This document shows positions 1-14,123 of a stretch of 16,118 bases of DNA, in pieces. Location: positions 1 to 16,118 of the forward strand of contig JADFXS010000045.1 in the NCBI GenBank assembly GCA_015233515.1, in the 5' to 3' direction. The DNA is from Deltaproteobacteria bacterium (GTDB taxonomy: Bacteria > Desulfobacterota > Desulfarculia > Adiutricales > JAGVGV01). Numbering within the stretch: position 1 is the stretch's first letter; every line of letters starts with the position of its first letter. Position numbers and translations under genes: made by a program. A model generated the notes under the pieces. That model did no database searches. It had not been told where the DNA came from and saw only the letters and a program-made list of their open reading frames with translations.

Positions 1-538
1 TCACAGTTCATTAAGGCGGCTTTCAAAACACCCGTAAATGCCTTTGCGTACATGACCGATGCATACTCGTCAGATGGCCAGGCCGTGTTGGAAAAAATCT
101 CTTATGCCCGCAACTCTCGCCTTAGGCGGGGTAGATATCATGTACGGCGCCGGCCGTCTGGGAGGAAGCACCTGCGCAAGCCCGATCCAGATGATAATCG
201 ACGACGATTTAACCGTGGTTACCAAAAGAATGATCGCCGGCGTGAAAATTGATGAAGACCGGCTGGCCCTGAACCAAATCCTTGAAGCCGGCGCCGGCGG
301 CAATTACCTCACGATGGATCACACCAGAAGATATTGCCGTGAAACCGCTCGCCCTGAACTGTGTAGGCAAATTGGGCTGGACAACTGGCAAGATGGAGGC
401 AAGAAGAATTATTTTGACCGGGCAGTGGAAAAGTACCGCAGGATTCAAAAGGAACTCAAGCCTCAAGATCTGCCGGATGACGTTGTGAAGGAAATGAATA
501 GCATTGTCCGAAAAGCAGATAAGGCTTTGTGCGCCTAA
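1..538 (+). pseudogene. MttB-superfamily corrinoid methyltransferase, 3' part, frameshifted
   Basis: This is the C-terminal portion of an MttB-superfamily (COG5598) methyltransferase, the family that moves a methyl group from a methylamine or quaternary amine to a partner corrinoid protein. The reading frame from base 1 gives a family-like stretch (TDAYSSDGQAVLEK) up to about base 108. The match then continues one frame over (LALGGVDIMYGAGRLGG, AGAGGNYLTMDHT) to the stop at 536-538. One extra C in the CCC run at 107-109 explains the shift: removing it gives an uninterrupted ISYAATLALGG. The C-terminal end (DRAVEKYRRIQ, LPDDVVKEM) is typical of the family. The visible part should cover the site of pyrrolysine in trimethylamine methyltransferase, about two thirds along that protein, but no in-frame TAG occurs. 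A non-pyrrolysine homologue (as for glycine betaine, proline betaine or carnitine) is therefore more likely. It lies 25 bases upstream of its corrinoid protein. The 5' part is outside the window. The frameshift may be real decay or an assembly error. The family is confident; the substrate is unknown. Confidence 0.85.
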
Positions 539-563: not shown

Positions 564-1199
564 ATGGGTGATTATAATAAAATAATGGAAGCGGTTATTA
601 AAGGGGATAAACGCAATGCCGCGGATCAAGCAAAACTGCTTTTAGAGTCTGGAAACGACCTGATAGATGTCATTGAGAATGGCCTGAATGTGGCGATGGG
701 AATTGTCGGAGATCGTATGAAAACGGGTGAAATGTTCATTCCGGAAGTACTGCAATCCGCCATTGCCATGAGGTCCGCGGTCGATGTCTTTAAGCCGCAC
801 ATGGATGCCGGTGAAATCAAGAGCCTGGGCAGGGTTGTGCTTGGAAGCGTTAAAGGGGATTTACACGATATCGGCAAGAGCCTGGTTAGCTTGATGTTGG
901 AAGGCGCCGGGTTTACGGTTTTTGATTTGGGGGTCGATGTTGAGCCGGAACGATTTGTCAAAGCGATAAAAGAACATAACGCCCAACTTGTCGGTATGTC
1001 CGCATTGCTGACAACCACCATGCCTAATATGGAACGTACTGTCAAGGCGATAAAAGAAGCTGGATTACGAGACCAAGTTAAAATTATCCTTGGCGGTGCG
1101 CCAATTAACCAAAAATTCGCCGATAAAATCGGCGCGGATGGTTATGGCGAGAATGCGGGTTCAGCAGTTCAGCTCTCCAAAAGTTTGTTAAAAATTTAG
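564..1199 (+). CDS. Corrinoid (B12-binding) protein, MttC/MtgC type
   Basis: This 211-residue corrinoid protein accepts a methyl group from the MttB-type enzyme upstream on its bound Co(I) cobamide and passes it to a second methyltransferase that methylates tetrahydrofolate or coenzyme M. Residues about 5-85 form the helical cap typical of methionine-synthase-like B12 proteins. Residues about 88-211 are the Rossmann-like B12-binding domain, with the DxHxxG motif at 99-104, so His101 is the expected lower-axial cobalt ligand. A SALLTTT segment and a late LGGAP / GADGYGENAG segment complete the cobamide-binding pattern. The length is normal for MttC, MtgC and MtbC proteins. The ATG at 564 is chosen because AAGGAG lies at 551-556 with good spacing; the upstream in-frame ATG at 504 lies inside the preceding gene and lacks this site. 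No reductive activator (RamA-like) is seen in the window. Confidence 0.95.
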   Translation: MGDYNKIMEAVIKGDKRNAADQAKLLLESGNDLIDVIENGLNVAMGIVGDRMKTGEMFIPEVLQSAIAMRSAVDVFKPHMDAGEIKSLGRVVLGSVKGDLHDIGKSLVSLMLEGAGFTVFDLGVDVEPERFVKAIKEHNAQLVGMSALLTTTMPNMERTVKAIKEAGLRDQVKIILGGAPINQKFADKIGADGYGENAGSAVQLSKSLLKI

Positions 1200-1313: not shown

Positions 1314-3335
1314 ATGATCAGCCATGTTGAAATATCACGCGCCATGAAAGTGCGGCTTGATGACGATCTTCCAGAGCTTCAAGCGTTCAAGCCCGGAATC
1401 CGCAGGGCGCCGGACCGTGGATTCAGATTGACAGAAAATCAGACTCGCGTCGCTCTGAAGAATGCCTTGCGATATATTCCCCAACAGCATCACGCTGCCC
1501 TGATCCCAGAATTTCTTGAAGAGTTAAAAACCCGTGGGCGTATTTATGGATATCGCTTTAGGCCCCACGGGTGGATCAAGGCAAAACCCATCGATGAATA
1601 TAGGGGCTGTACGGTCGCAAAGGCCGTTCAGTTAATGATAGACAATAATCTTGATTTTGATGTAGCGCTCTACCCTTATGAGCTGGTGACCTACGGCGAA
1701 ACCGGGAGTGTCTGCCAAAACTGGATGCAGTATCGCCTGATCAAAAAATACCTTGAAGTACTTACCGAAGAGCAGACTTTGGTCCTGCAATCGGGTCATC
1801 CGTTAGGTCTTTTCAAATCATCTCCCGAAAATCCCAGAGTCATTATTACCAACGGTCTTATGGTGGGACTGTACGACAATCCGGATGATTGGGAAATAGC
1901 CGCGCAAATGGGCGTCTCTTCCTATGGCCAGATGACGGCCGGCGGGTGGATGTACATCGGGCCTCAAGGCATTGTCCACGGAACTTACAATACCCTCCTG
2001 AATGCCGGCCGGAAGAAGTGCAACGTTGGCGAAGGTGGAAATCTGGCCGGTCTTTTATTCCTGACCTCCGGCCTTGGCGGAATGAGTGGCGCACAGCCCA
2101 AAGCCGCGAAAATTGCGGGTGCGGTGTCGGTCATTGCCGAAGTGGATTATAGCCGGGTTGAGACGCGCCACTCCCAGGGCTGGGTGGATATGGCATTGAC
2201 AGACTTGTCGGAAGTTTTTCGGCAAGCCGCCCGGGCAATGGAGCGCAAGGAAGCTCTGTCTATCGCCTATCACGGCAATATTGTAGATGTTTTGGAATAC
2301 GTCGTCGAAAATAATATTCACGTGGATCTCTTGTCCGACCAGACTTCATGCCACGTAGTATACGACGGCGGATATTGCCCCCAGGGTATCAGCTTCGAAG
2401 AGCGAACCGAGTTATTATCCAAAGACAGATCACGGTTTAAAAAACTGGTGAATAAGAGCCTGAAACGACATTATGAGTTGATCAAGATCCTGGTTGCGCG
2501 GAATGTTTTCTTCTTCGATTATGGAAATGCCTTTTTAAAGGCGGTATTCGATTCCGGAGTAACAGAGGTTGTTAAAAACGGCGTCGATGCCAAGGACGGA
2601 TTCATTTTCCCTTCATATTTCGAGGATATCATGGGGCCGATTTTTGATTATGGATACGGTCCCTTCCGCTGGGTCTGCCTCAGCGGCCAACCCGAAGATC
2701 TTCAAAAAACCGATCTGGCGGCCATGAGTTGTATCGATCCGGATCGCCGCTCGTATGATATGGATAACTATGTCTGGATTCGGGATGCCGGAGCCAACAA
2801 TCTGGTAGTTGGCAGTCAAGCCAGGATTCTCTATCAAGATGCTGTCGGTCGGGTGACCATTGCGCTCAAATTCAACAAGATGGTTCGCGAAGGCGAGATC
2901 GGTCCCGTGATGGTAGGGCGCGACCATCACGACCCCGGCGGAACAGATTCCCCTTTTCGAGAAACAGCCAACATCCATGACGGCAGCAATGTCTGCGCCG
3001 ATATGGCGACCCATTGTTTTGCCGGTAACGCGGCGCGTGGCATGTCCATGGTGGCACTGCATAATGGAGGTGGGGTCGGTATCGGCAAGGCGATCAATGG
3101 CGGCTTCGGGCTGGTTCTGGACGGCAGCGACCGAGTGGACGGAATTATTCGGTCGGCCATGTTATGGGATGTCATGGGCGGTGTAGCTCGTCGCAACTGG
3201 GTCCGAAACCCTAACGCCATGGAAGTGGCGATAGCCTATAACCAGGATAACCCAAACGGTGATCACATCACCATCCCCTATTTAGCCGATGAAACCGTAG
3301 TGACCGCGGCTGTTAAAAAATTATTCGCCGACTGA
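1314..3335 (+). CDS. hutU: Urocanate hydratase (urocanase), long form
   Basis: Urocanase adds water to urocanate to give 4-imidazolone-5-propionate, the second step of histidine degradation, using tightly bound NAD+. The 673-residue product has the length of the long-form family (vertebrate and some bacterial enzymes) rather than the roughly 555 residues of the Pseudomonas/Bacillus form. Recognisable blocks are a glycine-rich NAD-binding segment (GLGGMSGAQPKAAKIAGA, 253-270), DQTSCH (342-347), FDYGN (401-405), GPFRW (449-453), RDHHDPGGTDSPFRET (536-551) and HNGGGVGIGKAINGGFG (583-599). The short-form signature around GLPARICW corresponds here to GSQARILY (500-507), so the signature Cys is Leu; as I recall, this is normal for the long form. 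AAGGGG precedes the ATG with acceptable spacing. No histidine ammonia-lyase is in the window, and the next pathway enzyme survives only as a relic at 13127. A thiourocanate or N-methylated urocanate substrate cannot be excluded from sequence. Confidence 0.95.
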   Translation: MISHVEISRAMKVRLDDDLPELQAFKPGIRRAPDRGFRLTENQTRVALKNALRYIPQQHHAALIPEFLEELKTRGRIYGYRFRPHGWIKAKPIDEYRGCTVAKAVQLMIDNNLDFDVALYPYELVTYGETGSVCQNWMQYRLIKKYLEVLTEEQTLVLQSGHPLGLFKSSPENPRVIITNGLMVGLYDNPDDWEIAAQMGVSSYGQMTAGGWMYIGPQGIVHGTYNTLLNAGRKKCNVGEGGNLAGLLFLTSGLGGMSGAQPKAAKIAGAVSVIAEVDYSRVETRHSQGWVDMALTDLSEVFRQAARAMERKEALSIAYHGNIVDVLEYVVENNIHVDLLSDQTSCHVVYDGGYCPQGISFEERTELLSKDRSRFKKLVNKSLKRHYELIKILVARNVFFFDYGNAFLKAVFDSGVTEVVKNGVDAKDGFIFPSYFEDIMGPIFDYGYGPFRWVCLSGQPEDLQKTDLAAMSCIDPDRRSYDMDNYVWIRDAGANNLVVGSQARILYQDAVGRVTIALKFNKMVREGEIGPVMVGRDHHDPGGTDSPFRETANIHDGSNVCADMATHCFAGNAARGMSMVALHNGGGVGIGKAINGGFGLVLDGSDRVDGIIRSAMLWDVMGGVARRNWVRNPNAMEVAIAYNQDNPNGDHITIPYLADETVVTAAVKKLFAD

Positions 3336-9610: not shown

Positions 9611-10636
9611 TCAAACCCGTTGTGTCGAAGTAGCAGTCATTCTCAACCGGCCCGTTTCCAAGACCTCTCCATTGACGATATGAGCAGGCAATTCACCTTT
9701 GAAAACCTTGATAACCGCCTGAGCAGATCTAGTCCGAGCTTCGGACAAGGCGTCCTCCGAGTAGAAAGCGGCATGCGGGGTGACCAAAACATTATCCAAG
9801 GACAGCAATGGGCTGTCAAAATCCGGAGGTTCTTTTTCCAAAACATCCAGGGCGGCTCCCCGAATAAGGCCGCTCTTCAATGCTTCATAGAGAGCCTTTT
9901 CATCGACCACTCCCCCACGACACGTGTTGATGATAAAGGCTGATCGTTTTATGCGTGACAGTTCTTCCGCACCGATGGATTTTCGCGTACCCTTCGCAAG
10001 GGGCACGTGGATTGAAAGATAATCCGCCGCGGCAAAGGTCTCTTCCCTCGAGGCTGACTGCACTCCCTGAGCCTCAAAAACCTCATCAGGGATGAATGGA
10101 TCGTAGGCCACCACTCTCATCCCGAAACTCATGGCTCTTGCGGTCACCGCTTGAGAGACCCGACCAAAGCCAATCAGGCCCAAGACTGAACCTCTGATAC
10201 GTTCGCGCGGGCCGGCGGATTTATAATCCCAGATCCCGTTGCGAATCATGCGATCATACTGGAAGAGACCTCTGGCGCAAGAGAGGATCATGGCCATGGC
10301 ATGATCGGCGACTTCTTCAAAACAGTAGTCCGGGCAATTCACTATCAGGATGCCTTCTTCGGTGGCAGTTTCCAAATCAACGTTATCGAAGCCGGCGCCG
10401 CTCATCGAAATGATTTTACATCGTTGAAGAGACCTGATCACCTTCCGTGACAGAGGCGCGTATCCAAGGATGATGGCATCCGCATGCTCGGACAATCGAA
10501 GGACTTCGTCTTCATGCCTGCACTGCGCGGCTGTGAAATTGATGCCGAGTGGAGAAAAGATGCCATGCTCGATACTCAAGTCCGGCCATTCGTAATCAGT
10601 CAAAACGACATGGAATTGGGATTCATGACTCATCAT
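9611..10636 (-). CDS. D-2-hydroxyacid dehydrogenase, CtBP/phosphoglycerate dehydrogenase-like
   Basis: This is a predicted cytosolic NAD(P)-dependent dehydrogenase that interconverts a 2-oxo acid and a D-2-hydroxy acid. In the 341-residue product, residues 1-105 and about 300-341 form the substrate domain and the middle forms the Rossmann domain. The nucleotide loop reads GLIGFGRVS (153-161), where the usual last Gly is Ser. The catalytic triad is present: Arg240 in NTCRGGVVDE, Glu269 in DVLEKEPP and His288 in TPHAAFYS. The PDYCFEEVADHA block places it near C-terminal-binding-protein-like dehydrogenases rather than SerA, and no ACT domain follows. GGAGAAA lies upstream of the ATG pair. It is divergent from the AcnX genes and converges on the importer. 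In this setting it might reduce or oxidise an imidazole- or proline-derived keto acid, but the substrate cannot be read from the sequence. Confidence 0.88.
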   Translation of the reverse strand: MMSHESQFHVVLTDYEWPDLSIEHGIFSPLGINFTAAQCRHEDEVLRLSEHADAIILGYAPLSRKVIRSLQRCKIISMSGAGFDNVDLETATEEGILIVNCPDYCFEEVADHAMAMILSCARGLFQYDRMIRNGIWDYKSAGPRERIRGSVLGLIGFGRVSQAVTARAMSFGMRVVAYDPFIPDEVFEAQGVQSASREETFAAADYLSIHVPLAKGTRKSIGAEELSRIKRSAFIINTCRGGVVDEKALYEALKSGLIRGAALDVLEKEPPDFDSPLLSLDNVLVTPHAAFYSEDALSEARTRSAQAVIKVFKGELPAHIVNGEVLETGRLRMTATSTQRV

Positions 10637-10752: not shown

Positions 10753-10826
10753 TTATCATATATCAAAATAATGCAATTAATAAAGTTTTTTATTGATCAT
10801 AAAAACTTATTGTGATATATGACTAA
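10753..10826. promoter_or_regulatory. Two operator-like inverted repeats upstream of the dehydrogenase
   Basis: TCATATATCA at 10756-10765 and its exact reverse complement TGATATATGA at 10813-10822 are 47 bases apart. Each is itself an imperfect palindrome around ATATAT. The second site reads TTGTGATATATGACTA (10810-10825), which fits the T.GT...AC.A symmetry of FadR/FCD-type GntR operators. An 11-base match (ATATATCACAA in the reverse orientation) occurs upstream of the GntR gene at 14180-14190. Binding by that regulator is inference. Confidence 0.4.
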
Positions 10827-10872
10827 TATTACGTTGGCGGCTAGTACTTGCTTGCATAAATCAGAGCAACGT

Positions 10873-11120
10873 TTATGGAGCTTTTGGAGGCCAACCCTCC
10901 AGAGGCGAGTCAAAATCGGTCCAACATGCAGGCGAACTGTCCCCGCGGCATTCCGCGGGACAGCGAGCGAAATTAAAACGCTCCGCCTCCTTCGCCAAAG
11001 AATGAACCGGTCTCGAAGAGACATCCTTCGCTCGGTCTTGGTGTTTCTTGTCCAAGCCTGGAGCGTTTCTTTTTCTTCTTTACGGAGTTCTATCGTTGTT
11101 GGTTTCATAGTGGAGACCAT
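10873..11120 (-). pseudogene. Decayed N-terminal fragment of an IS630-type transposase
   Basis: Read on the minus strand from 11120, the sequence gives MKPTTIELRKEEKETLQAW, TKTERRMSLRDRFIL and, after frame changes, a W...F...PLEGWPPKAP segment ending at TAA 10873-10875. This resembles the helix-turn-helix N-terminus of IS630/Tc1-like transposases (LxxEERxxLExW, Q/RRLxLRARIIL, W..RF...GLEGL..AP). The DDE catalytic domain is missing, and no terminal inverted repeats or target duplication were recognised. It occupies the divergent region between the dehydrogenase and AcnX genes. I see no gene in the remaining bases 10637-10872 and 11121-11363. Confidence 0.5.
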
Positions 11121-11363: not shown

Positions 11364-12593
11364 ATGTATTTAACCCAATTTGAAAAAAAGATGTTAGCTG
11401 GAGAATTTGGAGTGGGTGACCAGGAAGCGATGAAGCTTTTAGTCGCCATTGGCGACGCCCTGGGAGCCGAGCGCATGGTGGAAATCAGCCGCGCGCATGT
11501 ATCATTTACGCATTTTCCTTCTGATAAATGGTACACATCCAAAATGCTTGCCGATGGAGCCAGGTGCCGTATCAGCCCGACAAATAATCCATTGTATGAT
11601 GTTGATTATCTGGAGAAATCAGGATTCGGGGATCCTGTCGGACATAAAGAACACCTAAGAAGCGTCAAGGATACATTTCAGAAACTTGGCATTACGCTCA
11701 CCTACAGCTGCACCCCTGAAATTCAGCAAAACGTACCACGGTTCGGGGAACATGTTGCCTTTGCCGAATCGAGTGCAACGCCATACGTCAATGCTGTCTG
11801 TGGGGCCAGGAGCAATCGGGAATCGGCCAAAAGTGCGTTTGCCGCCGCCGTTACAGGTCGGACACCGCTTTACGGATTCCATTTGGATGAAAACCGATAC
11901 GGCGACACACTTATCAATGTGGAAACAGCCATTACCGACGATTTTGATTACCACTTGCTAGGATATGTTGCTTCCCAAAAAATGGGATTCGGCGTTCCGG
12001 TCTTCACAGGAATGCCAAAAAATCCAACCCAGGAAGAGTTGGTTAGCTTTGGAGCGCAACTGGCCACGGGAGGGTCCGTCGGCATGTATCATATTGTGGG
12101 AGTAACCCCGGAAGCACCTGATATAGAAACTGCTTTTCATGGCAATACGCCCCATCGAACGATAACTATAACCTCTAAAGACCTCAATGATGTGCAAAAA
12201 AAACTGTCCAAGGGTGGCGATAAAATCGATTTTGTGATGTTTGGATGTCCTCACTACTCCATTACGCAAATAGTCGAAATCGCACGTGATCTTAATGGCA
12301 GGCAGATTCACGGGGATATCGATTTCTGGATACTTGCCTCCGCGGCCACCCGCCGGCTGGCCGGCGACATGGGGCTTTTGGATATCATCGAAAAGGCGGG
12401 GGGACATATCATGGAAAATACATGCGCCGATGATTCTTGTTGGTGGAAAATATACGGCGGCAAGGTCGGTGTGACCGATAGTGTGAAGGCTGCATATTAC
12501 ACGCCTCGAATGGGTGTGGATTTCCATCTAAGAAGGCGCAGCGAGTGTGTTGAAATCGCGATAAAAGGAGGATTCGTAAATGAGAACCAATGA
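11364..12593 (+). CDS. Aconitase X large (catalytic) subunit, DUF521/AcnX
   Basis: AcnX enzymes are Fe-S hydro-lyases. Characterised members are archaeal phosphomevalonate dehydratase and bacterial cis-3-hydroxy-L-proline dehydratase. This 409-residue protein has the family blocks TYSCTPEIQQNVPRFGEH (113-130), FAESSATPYVNAVCGARSNRES (read as FAESSATPYVN followed by CGARSNRES), TGRTPLYGFHLDENR (164-178), FGCPHYSI (293-300) and ENTCADDSC (351-359). Cys116, Cys295 and Cys354 sit where AcnX cluster ligands are expected. GGAGGG precedes the ATG by a few bases. The small (swivel) subunit follows with a 14-base overlap, the split arrangement common in archaea and many anaerobes, as opposed to fused bacterial forms. 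Neighbouring genes do not include the pyrroline reductase or proline racemase usually found with hydroxyproline dehydratases, so the substrate is open. Confidence 0.92.
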   Translation: MYLTQFEKKMLAGEFGVGDQEAMKLLVAIGDALGAERMVEISRAHVSFTHFPSDKWYTSKMLADGARCRISPTNNPLYDVDYLEKSGFGDPVGHKEHLRSVKDTFQKLGITLTYSCTPEIQQNVPRFGEHVAFAESSATPYVNAVCGARSNRESAKSAFAAAVTGRTPLYGFHLDENRYGDTLINVETAITDDFDYHLLGYVASQKMGFGVPVFTGMPKNPTQEELVSFGAQLATGGSVGMYHIVGVTPEAPDIETAFHGNTPHRTITITSKDLNDVQKKLSKGGDKIDFVMFGCPHYSITQIVEIARDLNGRQIHGDIDFWILASAATRRLAGDMGLLDIIEKAGGHIMENTCADDSCWWKIYGGKVGVTDSVKAAYYTPRMGVDFHLRRRSECVEIAIKGGFVNENQ

Positions 12594-12999
12594 ACATGTA
12601 TTTACTTGTCATAGGATATCCGGGGATGATGTTGTCGAAGGGAAAGCGCTGATCAGCCCGGAAGCGATCTGTTTTTATATGGTTGAAGCTGAAACCGGGG
12701 TTATCAGCGAAAAGGGACACGCGCTGGAAGGGCAAAGTCTTAAGGACAGAATAGTGATAATGCCAAACGGAAAAGGCAGTTCGGTCGTTCAGGATGAAGG
12801 TTTTTTTGCCATGAAAAAAAATAATAGTGGCCCAAAGGCGATAATTGTAAAAGCACCGGATACGGTCCTTGTCGCGGGAACGATTGTGATGGGCTATCCT
12901 TTAATCGATCGTGTAGAATCAGATTTTTATGAACTTATCGAAAACGGCGACATTGTCCGTGTGGATTGTAATAAGGAAATAGTTGTGATTCATAAATAA
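12580..12999 (+). CDS. Aconitase X small (swivel) subunit, DUF126
   Basis: This 139-residue protein is the swivelling domain that completes the AcnX active site with the large subunit. Typical features are GDDVVEGKALISPEAI near the start, the GKGSS substrate-binding serine loop at 64-68 (within MPNGKGSSVV) and a central IIVKAPDTVLVAGTIVMGYPLID run split between two beta strands. The ATG at 12580 is preceded by AAAGGAGG, a near-perfect ribosome-binding site inside the end of the large-subunit gene, which implies translational coupling. The stop at 12997-12999 is 11 bases before the GTG of the MeTr relic, so the relic was probably once the next gene of this operon. Confidence 0.92.
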   Translation: MRTNEHVFTCHRISGDDVVEGKALISPEAICFYMVEAETGVISEKGHALEGQSLKDRIVIMPNGKGSSVVQDEGFFAMKKNNSGPKAIIVKAPDTVLVAGTIVMGYPLIDRVESDFYELIENGDIVRVDCNKEIVVIHK

Positions 13000-13010
13000 G
13001 GAGCTGCCTG

Positions 13011-13126
13011 GTGATTATAGTGGGTGAATTGATCAACGCCTCCAACAAGATTGTAAACGAGGCCATTGAATAAGAGGACCAGGCGGCCATTGAGAAGTTG
13101 GGTAGGGAATAGGCTGAGGCTGGAGC
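13011..13126 (+). pseudogene. 5' relic of a pterin-binding methyl-H4folate:corrinoid methyltransferase (MeTr type)
   Basis: From GTG 13011, with GGAG at 13000-13003 at good spacing, the frame reads VIIVGELINASNKIVNEAIE, then TAA (13071), EDQAAIEKLGRE, then TAG (13110), then AEAGA. This matches the first 35-40 residues of pterin-binding methyltransferases (AcsE/MtgA/MtrH-like): I.VGE.IN.S...V..AI...D...I..LA..QAEAGA. Those enzymes transfer the methyl group between corrinoid protein and tetrahydrofolate, the partner step to the MttB/MttC pair at the left of this window. The TAG falls where Gln is usual, one transition from CAG. The TAA cannot be read as pyrrolysine, so it is a true relic. After AEAGA the same frame continues straight into imidazolonepropionase sequence; the junction lies at about 13113-13135. 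Confidence 0.72.
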
Positions 13127-13452
13127 CTATTTACGGAAGGCTGAAGTCCCTCTGGCAGTTTTCACGGACCGCAATCCCGGCTCCAGCCCCAGCACCTCGC
13201 GGCTGTTGATGATGGACATGGCCTAGGCGCAGTTTGGTCCGACACCGGCCGAATCCCTGGCCGGCCTGGCCATTAATGTGGTCCGAGTATTGGGAATGGA
13301 AGACATCAAGGGGAGTGAAAATCGGCAAATACGCCGATATGGTGCTTTGGAATATCACGGGGCCCACGGGACCGGCCTACCGGACGGGTGGCAATACCTG
13401 TCAGGCCGCAATCGAAAAAGGCGAAATCGTAATCGGGAAAAATTCAGAATAG
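13127..13452 (+). pseudogene. hutI: 3' relic of imidazolonepropionase
   Basis: Imidazolonepropionase opens 4-imidazolone-5-propionate to N-formimino-glutamate, directly after urocanase. In the same frame as the MeTr relic the sequence reads [31 protein letters not shown], a TAG at 13224, then AQFGPTPAESLAGLAINVVRVLGMED. These match the HutI block with TD.NPGSSP and the following NMAC..FGLTPEEAL helix. A +1 shift near 13310-13320 moves the match to the next frame (VKIGKYADMVLWNI, PAYRTGGNTCQAAIEKGEIV), ending at TAG 13450. The C-terminal third is therefore present, with one stop and one frameshift, and the N-terminal metal-binding part is absent. An intact hutI elsewhere in the genome would be needed for histidine use through this route. 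Confidence 0.8.
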
Positions 13453-13457
13453 AATTT

Positions 13458-13480
13458 GTGAAATCATATTTATATTTCAC
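13458..13480. repeat. Small inverted repeat between the hutI relic and the regulator gene
   Basis: GTGAAAT at 13458-13464 pairs with ATTTCAC at 13474-13480 around a 9-base AT-rich loop. It lies between convergent sequences, just past the GntR gene stop. It lacks a T-tract and GC-rich stem, so at best it is a weak terminator. Confidence 0.25.
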
Positions 13481-13487
13481 TATCTGC

Positions 13488-14123
13488 TTATGAGATAATC
13501 TCTCTTAACTGACTAACAAATTTTTCAATATGCTCTTGAATGGCATCTTGGGCAAGGCTGAAATCACGACTCTCGATACCATTCATGACTCTCCTAAGGC
13601 TATCAAAATGCGAGAACATATTTTTTTTGTTAAATCCTGCATTATACCAATATCTTGACATTAGAGTACGCATGCGATCCACACAACGGGTTAGCTCTTT
13701 ATTGTGGGCCGCCTCATAAACTGTTTGGTGAAATCTGGTATCCAGTTCAGTCTGAACTTCCAAATCTCTATTGTTTTCCTCTGCTTCTCCAAATCCATCG
13801 ATAATCTGTCTCAAAGTATGCAAATGCGATTCATTTCGTTTTTCAATGGCCAACTTTACCGCAAACTCTTCAAGTTCTTTTCGCATCTCCACAATTTCGC
13901 GGAGATCGGAAAGCTCTAGTGGTGCTACAATGGTACCCATTCGGGGGACAATCTTGATCAAGCCATCATTATGTAGTCTTAAAAGAATATCCCGTAGAGG
14001 AGTGCGACTGATCTGAAAACGCTTCATCAAAAAACGCTCGTCCAATTTTGTATTCGGTTTTAGCTCGTTAGCTAGGATCGCGTTCTTAATCTCGGTATAT
14101 ATATGTTCTTTATCTACTGCCAT
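13488..14123 (-). CDS. GntR-family transcriptional regulator, FCD subfamily
   Basis: This 211-residue regulator has an N-terminal winged helix-turn-helix (about 5-70) with the GntR signature SRTPLRDILLRLHNDGLIKIVPRMG, read as helix 39-54 followed by the wing. The C-terminal helical FCD effector domain has the metal/effector-binding pattern: Asp128 and His132 in LDTRFH, His172 in SHFDS and His198 in IQEHIEKF. FCD regulators usually repress catabolic genes and respond to small carboxylic acids or amino-acid derivatives. It is encoded opposite to the AcnX operon and divergent from the MFS transporter. Sequence similar to the 10810-10820 site occurs upstream of its start, which suggests autoregulation together with control of the dehydrogenase/AcnX region. 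No usual additional domain is missing. Confidence 0.92.
   Translation of the reverse strand: MAVDKEHIYTEIKNAILANELKPNTKLDERFLMKRFQISRTPLRDILLRLHNDGLIKIVPRMGTIVAPLELSDLREIVEMRKELEEFAVKLAIEKRNESHLHTLRQIIDGFGEAEENNRDLEVQTELDTRFHQTVYEAAHNKELTRCVDRMRTLMSRYWYNAGFNKKNMFSHFDSLRRVMNGIESRDFSLAQDAIQEHIEKFVSQLREIIS

What the first reader, a model, noticed from the sequence alone, without database searches (positions are those of the whole stretch)
13011..13452. Chimeric pseudogene joining a methyl-H4folate:corrinoid methyltransferase start to an imidazolonepropionase end
One frame passes from a MeTr-like N-terminus (VIIVGELINAS, AEAGA) directly into the C-terminal third of HutI ([14 protein letters not shown], then KYADMVLW one frame on). 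This fits an internal deletion that fused two adjacent genes, followed by decay through TAA 13071, TAG 13110, TAG 13224 and a frameshift near 13315. The two lost genes are the missing partners of the living genes: MeTr completes the MttB/MttC pair and HutI follows HutU. The AcnX operon therefore probably once included both a demethylation and an imidazole-ring step.
Basis: partly seen in the sequence, partly recalled or inferred. Interest (0 to 1): 0.8.

Follow-up and report, generated by a model that had tools for sequence, protein, structure and literature searches.

The report
Fused gene remnant beside aconitase X
A short stretch next to an aconitase X gene is the broken leftover of two fused genes, one for methyl transfer and one for histidine breakdown, and intact relatives suggest that this poorly understood enzyme belongs to histidine-type metabolism.

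Summary
13011-13127 encodes the first ~39 residues of a methyltetrahydrofolate:corrinoid methyltransferase (NF005719, E 1.2e-6) and runs in frame into the last ~105 residues of an imidazolonepropionase (TIGR01224, E 1.1e-8; solved HutI, E 1.7e-14). TAA 13071, TAG 13110, TAG 13224 and a frame change near 13315 kill it: a chimeric pseudogene, itself ordinary.

Relatives make it informative. Of 41 aconitase X (AcnX) places examined, 8 of 9 in the lineage nearest the window's have HutU within 10 kb, 0 of 32 others do. The window's AcnX lies in sister clade B, where only this window has context; the pseudogene links clade B to histidine genes.

Corrections: the MttB tail is not an intact gene, and the HutI remnant resembles classical HutI (42-47%) more than the HutI of AcnX loci. 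Boldest open reading: this AcnX dehydrates imidazolelactate to urocanate (untested).

The parts
13000..13013 (+). GGAG ribosome-binding-like site and GTG start of the former MeTr gene, just after the AcnX small-subunit stop
   Evidence: sequence
13011..13127 (+). remnant of the 5' end of a methyltetrahydrofolate:corrinoid methyltransferase gene (about 39 of about 265 codons), with TAA 13071 and TAG 13110
   Evidence: (NF005719 E 1.2e-6)
13128..13452 (+). remnant of the 3' end of an imidazolonepropionase (HutI) gene (about the last 105 of about 410 codons), with TAG 13224 and a frame change near 13315; stop TAG 13450
   Evidence: TIGR01224; 2oof_A E 1.7e-14
12580..12999 (+). aconitase X small (swivel) subunit, intact
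   Evidence: PF01989 E 6.4e-23
11364..12593 (+). aconitase X large subunit, intact, type II architecture
   Evidence: PF04412 E 1.2e-123
1314..3335 (+). urocanate hydratase HutU (673 aa, long type), intact
   Evidence: TIGR01228 E 1.4e-124, 416.7 bits against a cut-off of 375
564..1199 (+). MtgC/MttC-like corrinoid protein, intact (ORF from TTG 504; ATG 564 a likely start, by eye)
1..538 (+). tail of an MttB-family methyltransferase; the matching frame (59-538) is closed by stops at 35 and 53, so the gene is cut short or frame-broken here
   Evidence: (TIGR02369 E 5.4e-30)
9611..10636 (-). D-2-hydroxyacid dehydrogenase; relatives (35% identity in G671) sit beside AcnX in G671 and G1078
13488..14123 (-). 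GntR-family regulator on the far side of the remnant

Best explanation
13011-13452 is a non-coding remnant: a deletion removed the 3' four-fifths of a MeTr gene and the 5' three-quarters of a HutI gene that lay downstream on the same strand, and the fused frame decayed by three stops and a frameshift (shown: both ends, fusion, stops, frame change; inferred: a single deletion, its order relative to the decay). The MeTr gene began just after acnX-small and so was the next gene of the AcnX operon (sequence). In relatives AcnX of the sister clade sits in histidine-utilisation clusters, in some with MttB/MtgC (one also with MeTr) and a betaine-type transporter (shown for gene content), so the remnant is what is left of the methyl-transfer and imidazole part of such a module (inferred). 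Proposed working of the intact module (all inferred): a methylated histidine such as hercynine is imported, its methyl groups go through MttB, MtgC and MeTr to tetrahydrofolate, the imidazole acid reaches urocanate, and HutU and HutI open the ring; AcnX dehydrates a hydroxylated imidazole acid in this path. In the window the module has lost MeTr and HutI, and perhaps MttB, while AcnX and HutU remain intact.
For: Both halves recognised by profile, by solved structures and above shuffles. tblastn places HutI frames at 13125-13316 and 13315-13422. No protein of this build among those the large protein search scored (25 candidates sharing words, 0 at E <= 0.001), so no sign of a conserved fusion. 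AcnX context: all 41 AcnX places that searches returned at their cut-offs were fetched and examined; HutU within 10 kb for 8 of 9 of the lineage nearest the window's (1.7-5.3 kb), 0 of 32 others; without G671 and G1078, which trace back to a HutU query, 6 of 7 (Fisher p 2.1e-6, not corrected for kinship). G989:C129 holds MtgC, MeTr, MttB, HutH, HutI, FtcD, HutU, OsmF/OpuC transporter, AcnX, AcnX small, RidA, HisC-type transaminase, two more MttB and MtgC. Clades A and B join at 100/100 support.
Against: No clade-B row other than the window has genomic context, and later searches gave none. HutU lies 8.0 kb from AcnX in the window, with a transporter operon and a divergent gene between. The HutI remnant is not of the type found in AcnX loci. 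In 15 of 39 positions that mark the nine-sequence set the window's AcnX departs from the other eight, so its substrate may differ. The genes between MeTr and HutI, and the deletion itself, cannot be seen. HutH is present in 6 of 8 genomes tested, so AcnX does not simply replace it. Two 84-85% AcnX relatives are known only as proteins here.
Confidence: 0.75

Rival explanations
1. Assembly artefact: the contig wrongly joins a MeTr gene and a HutI gene.
For: No genome is held for the window and its AcnX cluster has one member sequence on one contig, so no second assembly checks the join.
Against: Both sides of the join are decayed: two stops in the MeTr part, one stop and a frame change in the HutI part. 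A wrong join of living genes would not do that.
Confidence: 0.07
2. The two remnants have separate histories: HutI arrived or decayed independently (for example from a classical hut operon) and was only brought next to the MeTr stump by rearrangement, so HutI never was part of the AcnX operon.
For: The remnant is nearest to classical HutI (42-47%, six proteins; four of these six lie in hut operons with standard HutU, and for two HutU), not to the HutI of AcnX loci (25-37%).
Against: Same strand, same frame over the join, immediately downstream of AcnX, and HutI lies within 11 kb of AcnX in L126, L127, L064, L166, L204 and on the G989 and G1032 contigs.
Confidence: 0.3
3. The stretch is still expressed, for instance as short peptides or by reading TAG as pyrrolysine.
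For: Two of three stops are TAG and MttB-type genes are near; the start and ribosome site survive.
Against: TAA 13071 and the frame change remain, and neither half contains a complete fold (39 of 268 and about 100 of 377 profile positions).
Confidence: 0.02
4. The link of AcnX and hut genes is real but the enzyme acts on a 3-hydroxy amino or betaine substrate (as the proline enzyme does), not on imidazolelactate, and the hut genes merely finish the ring.
For: RidA-type imine hydrolase beside AcnX in G989 and G1073 and a transaminase in G989; other AcnX lineages sit near MtgC (L177, L180) or MttB and MtgC (L185) without hut genes.
Against: The residue that binds the proline nitrogen (Asp203) is Ala or Ser in all 9 sequences of the set (window and eight clade-A rows); hydroxyacid enzymes (D-2-hydroxyacid dehydrogenase, LarA) sit beside AcnX in G671, G1078 and G129.
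Confidence: 0.35

Closest known systems
Methyltetrahydrofolate:corrinoid methyltransferase (NF005719, PRK07535)
   Same: first 39 residues incl. IIVGELINAS and AEAGA; preceded by a ribosome site
   Different: about 85% of the gene missing, two stops
Imidazolonepropionase HutI (TIGR01224)
   Same: last about 100 profile positions incl. TDRNPGSSP and ADMVLW
   Different: first about 276 of 377 profile positions missing, stop and frame change
Aconitase X type II, e.g. archaeal mevalonate 5-phosphate dehydratase fold (7cnr)
   Same: two subunits; cysteines, Glu, Lys and Tyr of the active site kept
   Different: phosphate-binding stretch not kept; hut genes in the window and in the sister clade
[quoted passage not shown]
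   Same: same family and most catalytic residues
   Different: separate subunits; the Asp that binds the proline nitrogen is Ser in the window
MttB-superfamily betaine demethylation (MttB-type, MtgC, MeTr)
   Same: MtgC-like corrinoid protein, MttB tail and MeTr remnant in the window; intact set in G989
   Different: sits with hut genes and AcnX; in the window MeTr is lost and the MttB tail is not intact

Membership tests
MeTr (NF005719) | N-terminal signature of the pterin-binding barrel | tested here: met
   E 1.2e-6, profile 2-40 of 268
MeTr (NF005719) | complete open frame of the barrel (about 265 aa) | tested here: not met
   two stops, then HutI sequence
MeTr (NF005719) | PF00809 match | tested here: not met
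   no Pfam hit for the 43-residue half; an intact MeTr in G989 hits PF00809 at 1.8e-24
HutI (TIGR01224) | C-terminal region | tested here: met
   E 1.1e-8 and 0.02, PDB 1.7e-14
HutI (TIGR01224) | N-terminal half and open frame | tested here: not met
   first about 276 profile positions absent; TAG 13224 and frame change
AcnX type II | separate large and small subunits | tested here: met
   PF04412 and PF01989 in two ORFs
AcnX type II | three cluster cysteines, Glu, Lys, Tyr of the archaeal enzyme | tested here: met
   C116, C295, C354, E135, K375, Y379; site list from PMC8184944
[quoted passage not shown]
   Ser47 in the window, Ala in the other 8 of 9
mevalonate 5-phosphate dehydratase | phosphate-binding stretch A47(G48-V49-S50)...N53 | tested here: not met
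   S47-F48-T49-H50...S53 in the ungapped part of the alignment
AcnX type II subclasses IIc-IIf | assignment to a published subclass | not tested
   reference sequences of the subclasses were not at hand
hut-linked AcnX (clade A of this report) | AcnX within 10 kb of HutU | tested here: met
   8.0 kb in the window
hut-linked AcnX (clade A of this report) | place inside clade A | tested here: not met
   the window is in sister clade B
imidazolelactate dehydratase | activity | not testable with these tools
   no assay possible

The most novel reading that the evidence does not exclude
A whole subclass of type-II aconitase X (clades A and B) is a hydro-lyase of histidine-type metabolism, most simply turning imidazolelactate (from histidine by transamination and 2-hydroxyacid dehydrogenase, or from a racemase) into urocanate, giving a route into HutU that does not need histidine ammonia-lyase; in some anaerobes it is coupled to corrinoid demethylation of a histidine betaine. 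The pseudogene is the fossil that ties clade B to it.
Probability: 0.3. Interest if true: 0.75.

Novelty: new variant of a known kind. Interest (0 to 1): 0.5.

Why it matters
Type-II aconitase X subclasses other than IIa and IIb had no assigned function in the 2021 structural study read in part here (PMC8184944, section 14). A repeated link with urocanate hydratase and imidazolonepropionase, in Desulfobacterota and Bacillota, with hydroxyacid enzymes next to it in three genomes and with the ammonia-lyase not found in two of eight tested genomes, gives a testable substrate class. The chimeric pseudogene itself is an ordinary case of gene decay, but it adds the sister clade to that link.

Tried and rejected
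Pfam on the halves found nothing for MeTr. Nucleotide search of 12900-13500 in plasmids gave 29 records with short weak matches, several annotated hutI, none covering 80% of the query. The chimera as a conserved short protein: 0 of 25 scored candidates. AcnX in viral contigs: none; in plasmids 103 records, all under 60% identity, 38% or less in the 25 listed. Clade-B AcnX in Desulfobacterota: 0 of 395 genomes of the phylum sample (the tool warns that an empty answer shows nothing), only clade-A G112 among 116 relatives of G001 and only G129 among 7 of its family. 'AcnX replaces HutH' as a general rule: rejected; HutH was not found in G671 and G846 but is present in G129, G112, G672 (AcnX broken), G780 (AcnX neighbourhood cut), G989 and G1032; G1073 and G1078 not tested; completeness of the genomes is not given. 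MttB frame change: the frame-1 piece 1-108 scores 30 against six MttB proteins and 312 of 1000 shuffles do as well, and two profile scans of that frame gave 0 families, so the frame change is by eye; only the closed tail frame is shown. A LarA fragment before the broken AcnX of G672: tblastn none, Pfam no LarA, NCBIfam LarAH10 E 0.0016; left as weak. Window ORF 10797-11120 (-) looked like a transposase by eye; Pfam 0 families. D-2-hydroxyacid dehydrogenase of the window as a fixed AcnX partner in clade B: by eye, apart from the window's own, no contig length is shared between the listed relatives of the two, so no support. A D-2-hydroxyacid dehydrogenase beside AcnX is seen only in G671 and its relative G1078.

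Full report
Observation. In the frame beginning at 13014 the window reads [72 protein letters not shown]..., and one frame on IGKYADMVLWNITGPTGPAYRTGGNTCQAAIEKGEIVIGKNSE*. NCBIfam recognises the first half as methyltetrahydrofolate:corrinoid methyltransferase (NF005719, E 1.2e-6, profile 2-40 of 268) and the second as imidazolonepropionase (TIGR01224, E 1.1e-8, 277-339 of 377; last piece E 0.02, 343-377). Four distinct solved HutI sequences match at E 1.7e-14 to 2.8e-6. Shuffle and cross controls agree. Pfam does not see the MeTr half. The GTG start and a GGAG site follow the small AcnX subunit at once, so by position the former MeTr gene was the third gene of the AcnX operon.

What it is. Only about 39 of 265 MeTr codons and about 105 of 410 HutI codons remain, and both parts are broken, so this is a pseudogene. 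The simplest history is one deletion between two same-strand genes, with decay; a rearrangement that joined unrelated remnants is not excluded. The large protein search scored 25 candidates sharing words with the read-through and none reached E 0.001.

Where the halves come from. Searching the read-through in 395 genomes of the phylum of G001 gave matches at E <= 1e-6 in 36; the six best (42-47%) are full-length HutI proteins, two of them confirmed by profile (TIGR01224). By ORF lists L118, L119, L120 and L121 are in hut operons with standard HutU (HutU of L118 and L120 confirmed), L117 has a cyclodeaminase-like and a methyltransferase-like gene before HutI, and L116 has no other hut gene in the fetched stretch. 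HutI near the window's long type of HutU in Desulfobacterales loci is only 32-37% identical where tblastn found it (L003-L021), and HutI of AcnX loci 25-37%. So the remnant is a real HutI, but its source differs from the usual partner of this HutU. The long HutU type scores 417-424 bits against TIGR01228 (cut-off 375), standard HutU about 900-970, so its exact substrate is not settled here.

The neighbourhood of AcnX. L126 showed AcnX with HutU, HutI and FtcD genes, and L083/L127 AcnX in another hut cluster. I then collected AcnX places: 1 in 3 genomes, 14 in 12 of 291 genomes at E <= 1e-60, 24 in 23 of 398 at E <= 1e-50 (one search repeated part of that sample), one new among 20 genomes and one new among 4, both at E <= 1e-90. 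These 41 places were all examined with tblastn of marker proteins at E <= 1e-10, many also by ORF lists; stretches were 9-22 kb, and in several the AcnX lies near a contig end. Nine are of one lineage (46-52% to the window): G129, G112, G671, G1032, G846, G989, G780, G1073, G1078. HutU lies 1.7 to 5.3 kb away in eight; G780 is cut 117 bases before AcnX. None of the 32 others matches HutU, HutI, HutH, FtcD, HutF-like or HutD queries in the stretch (one, L184, matches the M20-amidase query). G671 came from a HutU query and G1078 is its close relative; without them it is 6 of 7 against 0 of 32 (Fisher p 2.1e-6), a figure that ignores kinship.

Tree. In a tree of 69 AcnX rows (window, 40 context rows and 28 proteins that I chose from the 120 listed) eight of the nine fall in clade A (100/95) and the window in clade B (96/96), with A plus B at 100/100; G1078 was found later and is placed by identity only. 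The tree tool warns of long branches among the outer rows. Clade B has 20 rows and no context but the window's. Of 39 positions that mark the set of eight clade-A rows plus the window, the window departs at 15 (e.g. F51, N74, H130, H173), so its substrate may differ from that of clade A.

Methyl transfer. In G989 one contig carries MtgC, MeTr (NF005719 E 1.8e-113), MttB (PF06253), HutH, HutI (TIGR01224 E 5.6e-147), FtcD (TIGR02024), a cyclodeaminase/cyclohydrolase-like gene, a PAS regulator (by eye), HutU (TIGR01228), a ProV/OsmF-type betaine transporter, AcnX, small AcnX, RidA, a HisC-type transaminase, two more MttB (PF06253) and MtgC. G1032 and G1073 have similar sets (MttB in both, MtgC in G1032; the G1073 contig is only 11,082 bases; MeTr not matched in their stretches). 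So every hut, methyl-transfer and AcnX family seen in the window, the two lost ones included, occurs intact on one contig. In the window the MttB tail is a 159-aa frame closed by stops at 35 and 53, so it is not an intact gene; a frame change near 105-112 is my reading by eye and has no statistical support. Being at the contig end it may be an error or decay.

How it may work. AcnX keeps the archaeal type-II cluster cysteines (C116, C295, C354), E135, K375 and Y379 in the large subunit, and the Gly-Lys-Gly-Ser region in the small one, so it should be an active dehydratase. It lacks the Asp that binds the proline nitrogen and the phosphate-binding stretch of the two known enzymes (site lists from PMC8184944, of which I read the abstract, the introduction, section 14 and parts 2 and 3 of the results). 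In G671 and G1078 the AcnX pair is followed by a D-2-hydroxyacid dehydrogenase, then HutU and HutI, and preceded by an amidohydrolase of the HutF/deaminase kind (below every curated cut-off); G671 also has a second such dehydrogenase, a 2-oxoacid:ferredoxin oxidoreductase-like and a CoA-ligase-like gene, and no HutH match in the genome as held, like G846. In G129 a LarA-type hydroxyacid racemase follows. This suggests imidazolelactate to urocanate as the AcnX step; it is an inference with no test. HutH is present in six other tested genomes, so the enzyme would there serve another entry compound or direction.

Literature. Searches for aconitase X with histidine (5 papers), AcnX with dehydratase (4), combinations of urocanate hydratase, urocanase, aconitase X, DUF521 and imidazolelactate (19, none pairing a urocanase term with an aconitase X term), imidazole lactate with urocanate (0) and urocanate hydratase with trimethylamine methyltransferase (0) listed no paper on such a link; searches on hercynine and MttB listed none either. 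I saw listings only, apart from the parts of PMC8184944 named above and passages of PMC5144071. The library lacks most subscription journals.

Verdict. The finding is confirmed as a chimeric pseudogene.

Noticed in passing
window 1-538: The MttB-family tail is not an intact gene: its frame is closed by stops at 35 and 53; it may be a second broken gene of the same module or an error at the contig end.
   Followed up: partly
L207 (G672:C43:26000-38000), L047:100-487: In a Dethiobacter genome a broken AcnX (two pieces in different frames) lies just after HutH in a hut operon, a second decay of the AcnX member; a weak LarA-like fragment precedes it.
   Followed up: partly
L164:1744-3000 (G780:C141): A histidinol dehydrogenase homologue (TIGR00069 E 6.1e-147) directly follows the AcnX small subunit.
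   Followed up: no
L064:7779-21170 (G671): Two D-2-hydroxyacid dehydrogenases, a 2-oxoacid:ferredoxin oxidoreductase-like gene and a CoA-ligase-like gene beside AcnX, HutU and HutI: could be an oxidative and a reductive branch of imidazolepyruvate use.
   Followed up: partly
L177, L180, L185: AcnX of other lineages lies near MtgC (L177, L180) or MttB and MtgC (L185) without hut genes, so AcnX and corrinoid demethylation may be linked more widely.
   Followed up: no
L117:2595-3290 and L083:673-1359: A small SAM-methyltransferase-like gene (by eye) sits between a cyclodeaminase-like gene and HutI or AcnX in two hut clusters.
   Followed up: no
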